From Lachnospiraceae bacterium (lineage in GTDB: Bacteria > Bacillota > Clostridia > Lachnospirales > Lachnospiraceae): a stretch of DNA of 61,018 nt. This document shows positions 13,421 through 17,623 of the stretch, in pieces. The notes beneath the pieces were generated by a model, which saw only the letters and a list, made by a program, of their open reading frames with translations, was not told the origin of the DNA and made no database searches. The stretch is taken from assembly GCA_017472605.1 (NCBI GenBank), contig JAFUPV010000073.1:1-61018 (forward strand), read 5' to 3'. Both the position numbers and the translations under genes were made by a program. Each line of letters starts with the position of its first letter. Within the stretch, counting starts at the first letter, position 1.

Positions 13421-15796
13421 TTACAGCAGCTTCAGGTTTCTCGCTGCAAGCACCGCGTCCGCCTTTCCCGACACGCCCAGTTTTTTGTAATTCTGCTTGA
13501 TGTGGTAACGGACGTTCTCCACCTTCATGGAAAGCCGTTCTGCAATCTCGCCTGCAGACAGGCCATCTGCCTGCAGACGCAGAATCGCCAGTGCATTTTC
13601 CGAGAAGTCCGGAAGATGAGCCATTTCACGCTTCAGATAGACCGGATAGTGAAGTGCCATTCGCTGTGTCTCCCGGAAAATCCGGTCAAGCCACAGCGGA
13701 TCCAGTCTGCCGCATGCTCTCAGACGTTTCTCTCCTGCTTCCAGAAGTTCCAGAATCGCTGCGCCTTCCTCTGACAGGATGCGGACGAAATGGTAAGCCG
13801 CCGCCTGCTCCATCGCTTCCAGCAGCAGGTCATACCAGTCCTTTTCTCCCATCCGGTAATGGGCAATTGCCATCAGAAGCTTCACTTCCATTCCAATGTA
13901 TGTCCGATTATAGGATTCCGCATAATAGTTCAGCTTTTCCAGCAGGGAGCAGGCTCTCCAATACTGACCAAGAAGCAGGTAGCAGCGCACTTTTGTCAGG
14001 TAGCGGTAACGTTCCAGGATGTAAAATTCCCGGTTTTCATCAGGAGCCGCCTTCATCCATCGCTCTGCCGCTTCCCGGTTTCCCTCAATCAGAAACAGAC
14101 GGCAGCGCAGCGCTTCCAGATTAGGCAGGATCTGCAGCACCTTTTTCTCCCGTACACGCTGTTCAAAGGAATTCAGCAGGCTGACTGCAGCTTCGTCCTC
14201 ACCATGAATCAGATTCATCCGAACCTGAATGCCGACACTGGCAAACTCGATTTCCATCCGTCCTCCGGCTTCCGCTTCCATGCGGCTGCGGCTGAGCATC
14301 GTAAGGACTTCATAGGTATCTTCCCCTTTTTCGTAGCTGCTCTCACCCAGCGCCAGATTTAAGAACCCTTTTCCGTAACGTCCAAGCGCGCGTTCCATGA
14401 TTTTTCCGACTGTCGACGCAAGCGCACGGTCATTGCGGCTCCACTCACAGAAATCCTTGCCTCCGTTCATGACCGACGGAAGATTGCTTGTCACGGAAAA
14501 CTCCGGCAATGTGATTCCCTTGTCGAACAGCATGGCCGGCAGTTTCTTCACAACTTCGAGAATTCCCGTCATACCGCGGTGGGGAAGGGCAATATCCAGG
14601 TAAAGCAGACGGGCAAGCGCCTCTCTCCGCTCTCCTCCGCGCACATTATCTGCATGTTTTTGAAGGCGTTCATACCACTCCTCGCTCTTCTGCGGCTGCA
14701 TCAGCAGCGAATACAGCATGCTCATGCCGCTAATCAGGATGGCACTGTCCTCGATATCCTGTTCCTCCATTCCCAGGTAGTAATCACGCAGTTCATGGTA
14801 ATGACCATTTCCCGGATTTCGTCTGGCATTGCGGATCAGCAGTTCCTTCACCCGTCCTGTCTGTCCGCACTGTTTATACATGTTAAGAGCCTCCGGTATC
14901 CGGTCATGCATCTCATAGTACAGACCGGCGCTGTAGCAGAATTCTCTCACCCGCTCCTGACCAAACGTCTTCTGCGCGCATCGGCGAAGCATGCGAAGGA
15001 ATTCTTTCCGGATCCGATACACTCCATTGCTTTCTTTCAGAAAATTTCCGGCACGCTGAGCCTGTTCCAGAAGCAGGCTGATGTGTCTGTTTCCTGCAAT
15101 CATCCCGGCAAGATTCTGATCAAACTCTTCCACAACGCTGACCATCATCAGAAACTCTGCCAGTTCCGGATCCATCTGAACCAGCACACTGTTTTCCAGA
15201 AACCGGTCGAAGGTAATCCGGACTTCTTCGATCAGCGTCTCATCAAGCGTTCTTCCTTCCAGCAATTTCATGGAAAACAGATGGTATGCATGTGCATTTC
15301 CATTGCACACCTCGCAGATTTTATCCGCAGCTGTCTGGCTCAGAGAAATCCCGGCGGCTTCCAGACATGCACAGATTTCCTTTTTCTTCAGTGCCAGCTG
15401 CTCTTCTCCAATGACGACCATTCCCTTTCTCAGATAGGCAGGAAGAAGCCAGGGAAGAACCGGACTTCTGCTGATCAGAATCAGCCAGATATCATCCCGC
15501 ACGATCAGTGAGAGAATTTTCTTCTGCACGTCTTCCCTGAAAAGCAAATGGAGATCGTCAATGACAACGATTGTCTCGTTCTGTTCTTTCACAGGCATAT
15601 TCACAAGATCCGAAAGATCCGGATTTCCATTCTCACAGGTATACCATCTGCAGTTTTTCTCACCGACAAACTGCTTTACCAGTTCTGTTTTTCCAAATCC
15701 GGTCGCGCCATAAATGTAGGTGACCTGATTCACATGTTTTGCCATTCGGAGCATCTTCCACGCCTCACCGGGAGCAATGTAGTCTTTTCGTTTCAT
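13421..15796 (-). CDS. Large ATP-binding LuxR family regulator (MalT/LAL type)
   Basis: 791-residue regulator of the MalT/LAL class. The N-terminus has a STAND-type NTPase with Walker A GATGFGKTEL (about residues 30-39) and Walker B IVVIDDLHLL. A long helical, TPR-like middle would bind an inducer. The last ~65 residues are a LuxR HTH (GLSAGEIAERLSMKVENVRY). Such proteins usually activate sugar or secondary metabolite genes after ATP and inducer binding. The target is not obvious: it faces away from oadB across a 260-bp gap. Codon use looks like its neighbours. Confidence 0.9.
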   Translation of the reverse strand: MKRKDYIAPGEAWKMLRMAKHVNQVTYIYGATGFGKTELVKQFVGEKNCRWYTCENGNPDLSDLVNMPVKEQNETIVVIDDLHLLFREDVQKKILSLIVRDDIWLILISRSPVLPWLLPAYLRKGMVVIGEEQLALKKKEICACLEAAGISLSQTAADKICEVCNGNAHAYHLFSMKLLEGRTLDETLIEEVRITFDRFLENSVLVQMDPELAEFLMMVSVVEEFDQNLAGMIAGNRHISLLLEQAQRAGNFLKESNGVYRIRKEFLRMLRRCAQKTFGQERVREFCYSAGLYYEMHDRIPEALNMYKQCGQTGRVKELLIRNARRNPGNGHYHELRDYYLGMEEQDIEDSAILISGMSMLYSLLMQPQKSEEWYERLQKHADNVRGGERREALARLLYLDIALPHRGMTGILEVVKKLPAMLFDKGITLPEFSVTSNLPSVMNGGKDFCEWSRNDRALASTVGKIMERALGRYGKGFLNLALGESSYEKGEDTYEVLTMLSRSRMEAEAGGRMEIEFASVGIQVRMNLIHGEDEAAVSLLNSFEQRVREKKVLQILPNLEALRCRLFLIEGNREAAERWMKAAPDENREFYILERYRYLTKVRCYLLLGQYWRACSLLEKLNYYAESYNRTYIGMEVKLLMAIAHYRMGEKDWYDLLLEAMEQAAAYHFVRILSEEGAAILELLEAGEKRLRACGRLDPLWLDRIFRETQRMALHYPVYLKREMAHLPDFSENALAILRLQADGLSAGEIAERLSMKVENVRYHIKQNYKKLGVSGKADAVLAARNLKLL

Positions 15797-16008: not shown

Positions 16009-16048
16009 AAAAATCAGAAGCGGCATAGTCCAAAGACTACACCGCTTC
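16009..16048 (-). terminator. Terminator of the oadB operon
   Basis: On the minus strand GAAGCGGTGTAGTC pairs with GACTATGCCGCTTC over 14 bp, two of them G-U wobbles, around a TTTG loop; TGATTTTT follows. It lies 9 bp past the stop of the 43-residue gene. Confidence 0.85.
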
Positions 16049-16056
16049 CAAATGAT

Positions 16057-16214: not shown

Positions 16215-17351
16215 TTACAGGAACTGTGATACCAGGTTAATGATCAGACCACCGGCAATTACAGATGCAATCTGACCGGAAACGTTTGCACCGGCTGCGT
16301 GCATCAGAATGATGTTGCCCGGCTCTTCCTGCGCTGCCATCTTCTGTACGACACGGGAAGACATCGGGAACGCGGAAATTCCGGCACCGCCGACCATCGG
16401 GTTGATCTTCTTCTTCAGGAACAGGTTCATGAATTTCGCAACAAGAACGCCGCCGATGGTATCCATGACAAACGCGAACAGACCGATTGCCATGATCATC
16501 AGAGTCTCAACAGTTACGAACTGCTCTGCCTTCATGCTGAAGGAAATGGAAATACCAAGAAGCAGGGTAACCAGGTTTGCCAGCTGGTTCTGTGCCGTAT
16601 CGGACATGGTTCCGAGAACACCGCACTCTCTGATCAGGTTACCGAACATCAGGAAACCTACCAGCGCAACGGACTGCGGAGCAACAAGACCTACACTGAT
16701 GGTGGTAACGATCGGGAATGCGATACGGATTCTCTTGGTAACAGCCTGCGGATTGTATTCCATGTGGATTGCACGCTCCTTCTTGGTTGTTACAAGACGG
16801 ATTGCAAACGGCTGAACGATCGGAACAAGTGCCATGTACGAATATGCGGCAACGGCGATCGGGCCCACATACTTGGAACCAAGAACCTGAGATACCAGGA
16901 TTGCAGTCGGGCCGTCAGCAGCACCAATGATACCGATGGAAGCAGCATCCAGGATGCTGAATCCAAGACATGCAGCCAGCAGAATCGCTGCGAAAATACC
17001 ACACTGTGCAGCTGCTCCAAAAAGGAACATCAGCGGGTTGGACAGAAGCGGTCCAAAATCGATCATTGCACCGATACCAATGAACAGCAGGATCGGCATT
17101 GCCTCAGATGCCTCAATACCTACATCAAACAGCCACTGAATAATTCCGTGCGACTCAATTCCTCCCTGCAGCGTCTGATCCAGCACGCCGGAAAAAGGAA
17201 GGTTTACAAGAATTGCGCCGAATCCCATCGGCAGAAGCAGCGACGGCTCATACTCCTTACTGATTGCAAGCCAGATCAGAACGATACCGATCGCAAACAT
17301 GACAACCTGCTGCCACGTTAACGCAAGCAATCCCTCCACCAAAAACTCCAT
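16215..17351 (-). CDS. oadB: Na+-translocating decarboxylase subunit beta
   Basis: 378-residue polytopic membrane protein of the OadB/GcdB/MmdB family, which couples decarboxylation of oxaloacetate, glutaconyl-CoA or methylmalonyl-CoA to Na+ export. The family signature GIIGAADGPTAI, with the Na+/proton aspartate, is present, as are the duplicated half-membrane repeats and the C-terminal AGANVSGQIASVIAGG segment. ATG 17351 follows GGAGGATGTAAC; the frame extends to 17459 but that part lies in the regulatory leader. No carboxyltransferase (alpha) or biotin carrier gene is in the window, so the partner must be elsewhere. Confidence 0.93.
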   Translation of the reverse strand: MEFLVEGLLALTWQQVVMFAIGIVLIWLAISKEYEPSLLLPMGFGAILVNLPFSGVLDQTLQGGIESHGIIQWLFDVGIEASEAMPILLFIGIGAMIDFGPLLSNPLMFLFGAAAQCGIFAAILLAACLGFSILDAASIGIIGAADGPTAILVSQVLGSKYVGPIAVAAYSYMALVPIVQPFAIRLVTTKKERAIHMEYNPQAVTKRIRIAFPIVTTISVGLVAPQSVALVGFLMFGNLIRECGVLGTMSDTAQNQLANLVTLLLGISISFSMKAEQFVTVETLMIMAIGLFAFVMDTIGGVLVAKFMNLFLKKKINPMVGGAGISAFPMSSRVVQKMAAQEEPGNIILMHAAGANVSGQIASVIAGGLIINLVSQFL

Positions 17352-17462
17352 GTTACATCCTCCAGTCTTTTGTTTTCCCAGGGAGATTTTTCTTTTGCAC
17401 GTACAGGCGTTTCCGCCGGATTCCAATTTTCTGCCTGCAGATGGCTGTTCCAGCTGCATCAG

Positions 17463-17592
17463 TAAAAAAGACTTTCATTGCAGGAAGCGTTCCCTGTAAT
17501 AAAAGTCTTGCTGTTTCAACTTACCGCGGGCATAAAGCCGGTTTGACGCATGAAAGTCCATATTAATCTATGGTAGCTACTCCCTTTGCATT
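17463..17592 (-). promoter_or_regulatory. Candidate yybP-ykoY (Mn2+) riboswitch with intrinsic terminator, upstream of oadB
   Basis: Minus-strand leader. Near its 5' end (17592-17572) is AAAGGGAGTAGC; later come GCGTCAA, ACCGGC and AGCAAGACTTTTAT (17513-17500). This order resembles the yybP-ykoY manganese riboswitch (GGGGAGUAG ... CGUCAA ... CCGGC ... AGCAAGACCUUU) from memory. The AAGACTTTTATT end is also the left arm of a terminator, AAGACTTTTATTACAGG with CCTGCAATGAAAGTCTT and a T-run (17509-17463). Aptamer closure and terminator are thus mutually exclusive, predicting an ON switch. One G of the GGGG run is missing. A Na+-sensing class is an alternative. Confidence 0.7.
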
Positions 17593-17594
17593 CT

Positions 17595-17623
17595 ATCATA
17601 AAGAATCTGCCGTGGATTGTCAA
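17595..17623 (-). promoter_or_regulatory. Strong predicted promoter of the oadB leader
   Basis: Minus strand: consensus -35 TTGACA (17623-17618), 17 bp spacer, -10 TATGAT (17600-17595). The transcript would start around 17588, at the 5' edge of the riboswitch-like leader. Between it and the terminator at 17890 there is nothing I recognise. Confidence 0.85.

What the first reader, a model, noticed from the sequence alone, without database searches (positions are those of the whole stretch)
17463..17623. Manganese-type (yybP-ykoY-like) riboswitch apparently controls a Na+-decarboxylase subunit
A consensus promoter, an AAAGGGAGTAGC box, GCGTCAA, ACCGGC and AGCAAGACTTTT are followed by a terminator whose left arm shares the AAGACTTTTATT aptamer end. 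That is the layout of an ON riboswitch. The known genes of this class, as far as I recall, are Mn2+ exporters and P-type ATPases, not oadB, so either the class regulates Na+ bioenergetics or this is a variant with a new ligand (Na+ is a natural guess).
Basis: partly seen in the sequence, partly recalled or inferred. Interest (0 to 1): 0.75.

Follow-up and report, generated by a model that had tools for sequence, protein, structure and literature searches.

The report
Manganese riboswitch before orphan OadB gene
An RNA switch of the manganese-sensing kind, missed by the standard RNA library, sits in front of a solitary relative of a sodium-pump subunit, which hints that this protein may serve manganese handling rather than the sodium pump.

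Summary
On the minus strand a promoter (17623-17595) leads into an aptamer (17588-17501) whose 3' strand is also the left arm of a terminator (17509-17464), ahead of an OAD_beta gene (start 17351). Rfam's manganese and sodium models do not match it, but the manganese model also misses or under-scores mntP leaders of relatives. A covariance model built only from seven mntP leaders finds this leader as its single hit in the window (55.2 bits), and in the whole genome only the mntP leader and this one. The L3 loop, UCAAACC, resembles that of the L. lactis Mn2+ riboswitch and keeps the Mn-sensing adenosine. Such leaders precede 21 of 39 close oadB relatives and 0 of 41 distant ones, with both known Mn2+ L3 types, which argues against a Na+ pocket. 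The gene is an orphan: 1 of 39 close loci has a carboxyltransferase-type gene in reach, against 29 of 41 distant loci; Na+-site residues are kept, Arg304 is mostly lost. Best reading: a Mn2+ ON riboswitch controlling an orphan OadB. The ligand was not measured; a role in Mn2+ export is my inference.

The parts
17595..17623 (-). sigma-70-type promoter TTGACA-17-TATGAT
   Evidence: 11 of 12 consensus bases; a consensus match, start site not measured
17501..17588 (-). aptamer of the yybP-ykoY (Mn2+) kind
   Evidence: only hit of the mntP-only model R2 in the window, 55.2 bits; R1, which was partly built from it, gives 89.7 bits
17577..17584 (-). 5' side of the L1 loop, GGGAGUAG
   Evidence: sequence; the GGGAGUA core is kept in all 22 rows of A5
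17540..17546 (-). L3 bulge UCAAACC; position 17544 corresponds to A41 of L. lactis / A48 of X. oryzae
   Evidence: correspondence by my alignment
17501..17509 (-). AAGACUUUU: 3' side of L1 and of switch helix P1.1, shared with the terminator
17464..17509 (-). intrinsic terminator, hairpin 17509-17468 and U tail
   Evidence: fold -19.9 kcal/mol; also in the fold of the whole leader
16215..17351 (-). oadB-family gene (OAD_beta), orphan paralogue, 378 aa
   Evidence: PF03977 5.2e-147, TIGR01109 1.3e-119
16014..16051 (-). terminator-like hairpin after the gene, which suggests a single-gene transcript
   Evidence: 17 pairs, T-rich tail

Best explanation
A transcriptional ON riboswitch of the yybP-ykoY (Mn2+) class, in a compact form without an evident P4. 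Without ligand the 3' strand of P1.1 pairs into the terminator and transcription stops before oadB. When Mn2+ bridges L1 and L3, with the N7 of the L3 adenosine as a contact, P1.1 is held, the terminator cannot form and oadB is transcribed. The product is an orphan paralogue of the decarboxylase beta subunit that keeps the Na+-site residues; most likely it is a Na+-coupled membrane transporter made when cellular Mn2+ is high, possibly a Mn2+ exporter. Shown here: relation to mntP leaders by a model made from them, covariation, terminator overlap, association with this oadB clade, orphan state. Taken from the literature on the class: Mn2+ as ligand and the direction of switching. Inference only: the transport role (I would give Mn2+ export about 0.28). 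The confidence below is for a Mn2+-responsive ON switch controlling this gene.
For: R2, built only from seven mntP leaders, finds the window leader as its single window hit and in the whole genome only the mntP leader and this one. L3 UCAAACC is close to the solved L. lactis L3 UCAAUUC; the third-position A is present in 19 of 19 readable oadB leaders of A5 (PMC6754395 passages). Both published L3 types occur before the same oadB clade. Covariation. Terminator overlap in 24 of 27 oadB leaders by folding, the other 3 read by eye. Leaders in 21 of 39 close loci and 0 of 41 distant loci. Orphan state 1 of 39 against 29 of 41. Other leaders found by the same search precede mntP and GDT1 genes.
Against: Rfam RF00080 does not reach E<=10 here. 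No P4 is evident, whereas the solved members are described with a four-way junction. 18 of 39 close oadB loci show no leader, so the link is not universal. Some leaders found by R1 precede genes with no obvious Mn2+ link (AI-2E, CitMHS, Na_Pi, Band_7). A review expects that some members of the class sense other divalent ions (PMC7266159 passages). mntP is present in 10 of 11 genomes with the close oadB, so a further Mn2+ exporter is not obviously needed. No ligand was tested.
Confidence: 0.74

Rival explanations
1. Same fold and mechanism, but the natural ligand is another divalent ion (Ca2+, Mg2+ or a mixture), and OadB and its partners serve that ion.
For: Leaders of the L. lactis-like type often precede P-type cation ATPases and Na_Ca_ex antiporters, and in G035 a CNNM/CorC gene. 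The S. pneumoniae mgtA leader is called Mn/Ca2+-sensing (PMC11434433 passages). A review expects such variants (PMC7266159 passages).
Against: The Mn-sensing adenosine is kept in 19 of 19 readable oadB leaders and L3 matches the two solved Mn2+ sensors; the mntP-only model recognises the window.
Confidence: 0.15
2. A Na+-sensing variant of the class that regulates Na+ bioenergetics.
For: The gene family is Na+-linked; in two relatives the operon also holds a Na_Pi_cotrans or CNNM gene. Na+-I riboswitches do control oxaloacetate decarboxylase genes in some bacteria (PMC9337991 passages).
Against: No match to the sodium family at the leader; the best match to RF03071 in this genome is 13.3 bits elsewhere, cut-off 40.5. 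L3 is of Mn2+ types, two different ones, before the same gene clade.
Confidence: 0.05
3. A true Mn2+ switch, but the orphan OadB works as an exchangeable beta subunit with the decarboxylase partners encoded elsewhere, linking Mn2+ status to carboxylate metabolism or Na+ pumping.
For: D203, S382, N412, Y229, N373, G377 kept in 40 of 40 and E40 in 39 of 40 (one gap). The genome has PYC_OADA- and Carboxyl_trans-type genes with another oadB on contig C10.
Against: R304 lost in 35 of 40 and N311 in 15 of 40, against 3 and 4 of 41 in distant relatives; R304A and N311A moderately inhibit decarboxylation (PMC7274780 passages). No partner gene of the two types searched in 38 of 39 close loci.
Confidence: 0.25
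4. Not a ligand switch but an sRNA or a plain attenuator.
For: The only Rfam match of any note is an sRNA, SSRC10 (18.9 bits, E 0.3).
Against: Covariation in 22 leaders and recognition by the mntP-only model. SSRC10 itself precedes a 'putative calcium transporter' gene (PMC3675131 passages) and may be a terminated leader of this kind.
Confidence: 0.03

Closest known systems
yybP-ykoY Mn2+ riboswitch of Lactococcus lactis (before yoaB; structure 4Y1I)
   Same: L1 GGGAGUA core, L3 of near-identical letters (UCAAUUC against UCAAACC) with the Mn-sensing A, P1.1 switch helix shared with a terminator, ON direction (PMC6754395 and PMC9190785, passages)
   Different: Downstream gene is an orphan oadB; no evident P4; ligand not measured here
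mntP leaders of the same genome and its relatives (G000 C62 and six others)
   Same: Same structure without P4, same terminator arrangement in the one folded (L178); a model made from them finds the window
   Different: L3 of X. oryzae-like type; gene is the known Mn2+ exporter family
Rfam RF00080 Manganese
   Same: GGGGAGUAGC and GUCA boxes and the layout of P3 with a 7-base bulge (alignments)
   Different: No match at E<=10; the model is 177 positions long with a helix after P3 that is lacking here
Na+-I riboswitch (DUF1646, Rfam RF03071 Sodium)
   Same: Occasionally found before oxaloacetate decarboxylase genes (PMC9337991 passages)
   Different: No match in the leader and none above cut-off in the genome
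Oxaloacetate decarboxylase beta subunit (OadB; 6iva, 6iww)
   Same: Fold family and Na+-site residues
   Different: Orphan; R304 mostly replaced; led by a riboswitch

Membership tests
yybP-ykoY (Mn2+) riboswitch | L1 loop GGGAGUAG with RAGAC on the 3' side | tested here: met
   window GGGAGUAG and AAGAC; same layout in the 22 leaders of A5
yybP-ykoY (Mn2+) riboswitch | L3 bulge with the invariable Mn-sensing adenosine | tested here: met
   UCAAACC, third base A; 19 of 19 readable oadB leaders in A5 have it, compared with letters in PMC6754395 (passages)
yybP-ykoY (Mn2+) riboswitch | similarity to leaders of known Mn2+ exporter genes (mntP) | tested here: met
   R2 from seven mntP leaders: 55.2 bits, single window hit; A7 was aligned with R1, so structure and register derive from R1
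yybP-ykoY (Mn2+) riboswitch | P1.1 switch helix exclusive with a terminator | tested here: met
yybP-ykoY (Mn2+) riboswitch | four-way junction with P4 | tested here: inconclusive
   no P4 evident in the window; the seven mntP leaders fit the same P4-less model, so I do not treat P4 as defining
yybP-ykoY (Mn2+) riboswitch | Rfam RF00080 score | tested here: not met
   no match at E<=10. A detection threshold, not a defining feature: E. coli mntP scores 41.6 against 45 and E. coli alx has no match at E<=1
yybP-ykoY (Mn2+) riboswitch | binding of and switching by Mn2+ | not testable with these tools
   needs in-line probing and transcription assays
Na+-I riboswitch (RF03071) | covariance-model match | tested here: not met
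Na+-translocating decarboxylase beta subunit, working in a complex | Na+-site residues D203, S382, N412 | tested here: met
   40 of 40 in the close clade
Na+-translocating decarboxylase beta subunit, working in a complex | partner carboxyltransferase gene nearby | tested here: not met
   window region has none; 1 of 39 close loci against 29 of 41 distant, two query types, flanks up to 5 kb
Na+-translocating decarboxylase beta subunit, working in a complex | conserved Arg304 | tested here: not met
   T in the window; R in 5 of 40 close and 38 of 41 distant

The most novel reading that the evidence does not exclude
The orphan OadB clade of Lachnospiraceae and Oscillospiraceae is a new family of Mn2+ (or divalent metal) exporters: a decarboxylase-pump subunit that parted from its decarboxylation partners, kept its Na+ site and elevator fold, came under Mn2+ riboswitch control, and exports Mn2+ against Na+ influx.
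Probability: 0.28. Interest if true: 0.75.

Novelty: new member of a known kind. Interest (0 to 1): 0.5.

Why it matters
If right, it adds a target gene that I did not find linked to this riboswitch class in my paper searches, and it uses the switch as a functional label: a solitary 'sodium-pump subunit' is probably a metal-handling transporter, which can be tested directly. It also shows that the Rfam manganese model misses compact members in these bacteria, mntP leaders among them, so surveys that rely on it undercount the class there.

Tried and rejected
Rejected: a new-ligand pocket. I first took the UCAAUAC-like L3 for a novel variant because it differs from the RF00080 consensus ACAUACU (note). 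PMC6754395 (passages) gives UCAAUUC for a known Mn2+ sensor, so I dropped this. Rejected: mutual exclusion with MntP (10 of 11 genomes with the close oadB also have it). Led nowhere: a search for clade-specific metal-binding residues; Rfam on ten relatives' oadB loci (no riboswitch family at E<=1); a promoter pattern with a wrong spacer length; the simple terminator scan, which does not list this stem.

Limits and results against. R1 was built from three leaders, the window among them. A5 and A7 were aligned by R1; R2 holds mntP letters only but inherits R1's structure. E-values of both models are rough. R2 does not hit the E. coli alx leader region at E<=1 (L062) and scores E. coli mntP at 22.4 bits only. 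One search left out L099 of the 39 close loci. One search lists 35 rows; I count 32 as leaders (three under 20 bits have no box near), and it missed the oadB leaders of G043 and G021, seen. L098 and L100 are gapped in A5, so their L3 was read by eye. L3 types were assigned by me; three of the seven L. lactis-like loops (L094, L112, L128) do not begin with U. The orphan test searched two gene types only, and some flanks are short. Gene names of L185, L186, L187, L091 and L106 were given by eye; L073 has no clear gene close behind its leader. Fold prediction and fold search were not used. Dambach 2015 and Price 2015 are not held, so their gene lists were not checked; Meyer 2011 was not looked up.

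Full report
What is there. On the minus strand a promoter-like TTGACA-17-TATGAT (17623-17595, 11 of 12 consensus bases) leads straight into an 88-base element (17588-17501) and a terminator (17509-17464). About 110 bases later come GGAGG and the ATG at 17351 of an OAD_beta gene (PF03977, 489.9 bits). A terminator-like hairpin follows the gene (16051-16014), so it may be transcribed alone. Neighbours are a LuxR/MalT-type regulator gene downstream and a DUF3791 gene upstream.

Rfam. At gathering score nothing is found in the window. At E<=10 the leader matches neither the manganese nor the sodium family; the best is SSRC10, a Streptococcus sRNA (18.9 bits, E 0.3). But RF00080 is a poor detector here: it is above cut-off in 0 of 61 relatives, scores the E. 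coli mntP leader at 41.6 against a cut-off of 45 and does not match the E. coli alx region at E<=1. Of the seven relatives whose mntP leaders I later modelled, four show no match (G000, G010, G016, G028), G001 and G037 show 18.9 and 19.6 bits at the mntP leader, and G017 a partial 20.3-bit match there.

Relatives. Of 61 related genomes, the window's own among them, 45 have an OAD_beta relative and 11 have one of the close clade, 64% identity or more. The same leader layout is found in G000, G015, G021, G033, G035 and G043. In G002 a leader stands at a contig end whose letters recur at the start of the contig with oadB. In G035 a CNNM/CorC gene and in G033 a Na_Pi_cotrans-PhoU gene lie between leader and oadB. 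G026 has a decayed-looking leader; in G032, G037 and G053 I saw none.

Model R1. Built from three leaders. In 61 genomes it lists 35 rows, 32 of which I count as leaders. Genes behind them, by Pfam or by the MntP search: mntP, GDT1, P-type cation ATPase, Na_Ca_ex antiporter, Band_7, CitMHS, AI-2E, CNNM, Na_Pi_cotrans, oadB, and small proteins without a Pfam family. The window's genome has three: oadB (window), mntP (C62, leader 17269-17357, gene match from 17603) and a Band_7 gene (C25).

Independent test. From seven mntP leaders (A7) I built R2. It finds the window leader as its only hit in the window at E<=10 (55.2 bits). In the whole genome at E<=1 it finds two places, the mntP leader, which is in its training set, and the window leader. 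Over 94 sources it gives 29 hits: 27 oadB leaders (G002's by the contig-end inference), one before a P-type ATPase-like gene (L106, by eye) and E. coli mntP (22.4 bits); none in the 41 distant oadB loci, and none at E. coli alx.

Named genomes. The scan kept the best 80 of at least 594 oadB relatives. R1 finds leaders in 22 of the 80; 21 lie upstream of oadB, all among the 39 close loci, none in the 41 distant ones (Fisher p 6e-9). One of the 21 (L099) is the G033 contig used in training. The records include Clostridium symbiosum, Lacrimispora, Eisenbergiella, Acetatifactor, Pseudoflavonifractor, Butyricicoccus and Marasmitruncus. Eighteen of 39 close loci have no hit; one of them (L129) holds almost no upstream DNA. 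Over the 22 hits 97.1% of cells pair, 23 of 26 pairs show changes on both sides, covariation 0.672. In 24 of 27 oadB leaders the fold shows the terminator built on the aptamer's 3' strand; my script cut three short (G035, L102, L112), which I read by eye.

The L3 loop. The solved L. lactis Mn2+ riboswitch has UCA41AUUC, that of X. oryzae ACA48UACU, the numbered A being the invariable Mn-sensing base (PMC6754395, passages). The window has UCAAACC. Among the 19 oadB leaders readable in A5, I class 7 as L. lactis-like and 12 as X. oryzae-like; all have that A. That both types serve the same oadB clade is the best argument here against a dedicated Na+ pocket.

The gene. A gene like OadA or like the C10 carboxyltransferase lies in the fetched flanks of 1 of 39 close loci and 29 of 41 distant loci. 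The genome has such genes on C10 with another oadB, 48% identical to the window's. Mapped on the Salmonella subunit (6iva), D203, S382, N412, Y229, N373 and G377 are kept in 40 of 40 and E40 in 39 of 40 (one gap). R304 is lost in 35 of 40, against kept in 38 of 41 distant relatives; N311 is kept in 25 of 40 against 37 of 41. D203A and S382A abolish Na+ binding; R304A and N311A only moderately inhibit decarboxylation, and R258A has little effect (PMC7274780, passages). So the Na+ site looks intact and the tie to decarboxylation looks loosened, not disproved.

Judgement. Membership in the Mn2+ riboswitch class is well supported; the ligand follows from the class and was not measured. That the orphan OadB handles Mn2+ is inferred from the company the switch keeps. 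Against it: mntP is usually present too (10 of 11 genomes), no new metal ligands stand out, and several targets have no clear Mn2+ link. A review already expects some members of the class to sense other divalent ions (PMC7266159, passages). My searches for yybP-ykoY or Mn2+ riboswitch together with oxaloacetate decarboxylase or oadB (listings) showed no paper on that link; the one paper with both yybP-ykoY and oxaloacetate decarboxylase, PMC9337991, concerns the Na+-I class, and its yybP mention that I saw is in the reference list (passages). The second listing showed 20 of 28 papers.

Noticed in passing
Rfam RF02617 (SSRC10), aligned to window 17564-17463 minus strand: The Streptococcus sRNA family SSRC10 shares GGGAGuag, GAAACAGCgaGaC and a following terminator with this leader and lies before a 'putative calcium transporter' gene in S. 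pyogenes (PMC3675131 passages): it may be the terminated leader of a Mn2+-type riboswitch rather than an sRNA.
   Followed up: partly
L068, L070, L090, L185 downstream of the leader: Leaders of this kind precede small proteins of about 140-150 aa that look alike by eye; L068, L070 and L090 have no Pfam match, L185 was not scanned. In L090 a second small membrane-like gene follows.
   Followed up: partly
L075, L089, L091: Leaders before SPFH/Band_7 (flotillin-like) genes, one in the window's own genome (C25); L091 by eye only. Why a metal switch would control these is unclear.
   Followed up: no
L055:8397-10490: A membrane pyrophosphatase gene (H_PPase) lies beside the orphan oadB in G053, where no leader was seen.
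   Followed up: no
L106:3071-3163, minus strand: In a locus whose close oadB has no leader of its own, a leader of this class stands before a P-type ATPase-like gene on the other strand (gene named by eye).
   Followed up: partly
L062 (E. coli K-12, alx upstream region): Neither RF00080 at E<=1 nor R2 at E<=1 matches upstream of alx, although an abstract seen (PMC9603457) reports a Mn-sensing riboswitch there.
   Followed up: no
window 13421-15796, minus strand: A large LuxR/MalT-type regulator gene follows oadB on the same strand, beyond a terminator-like hairpin.
   Followed up: no
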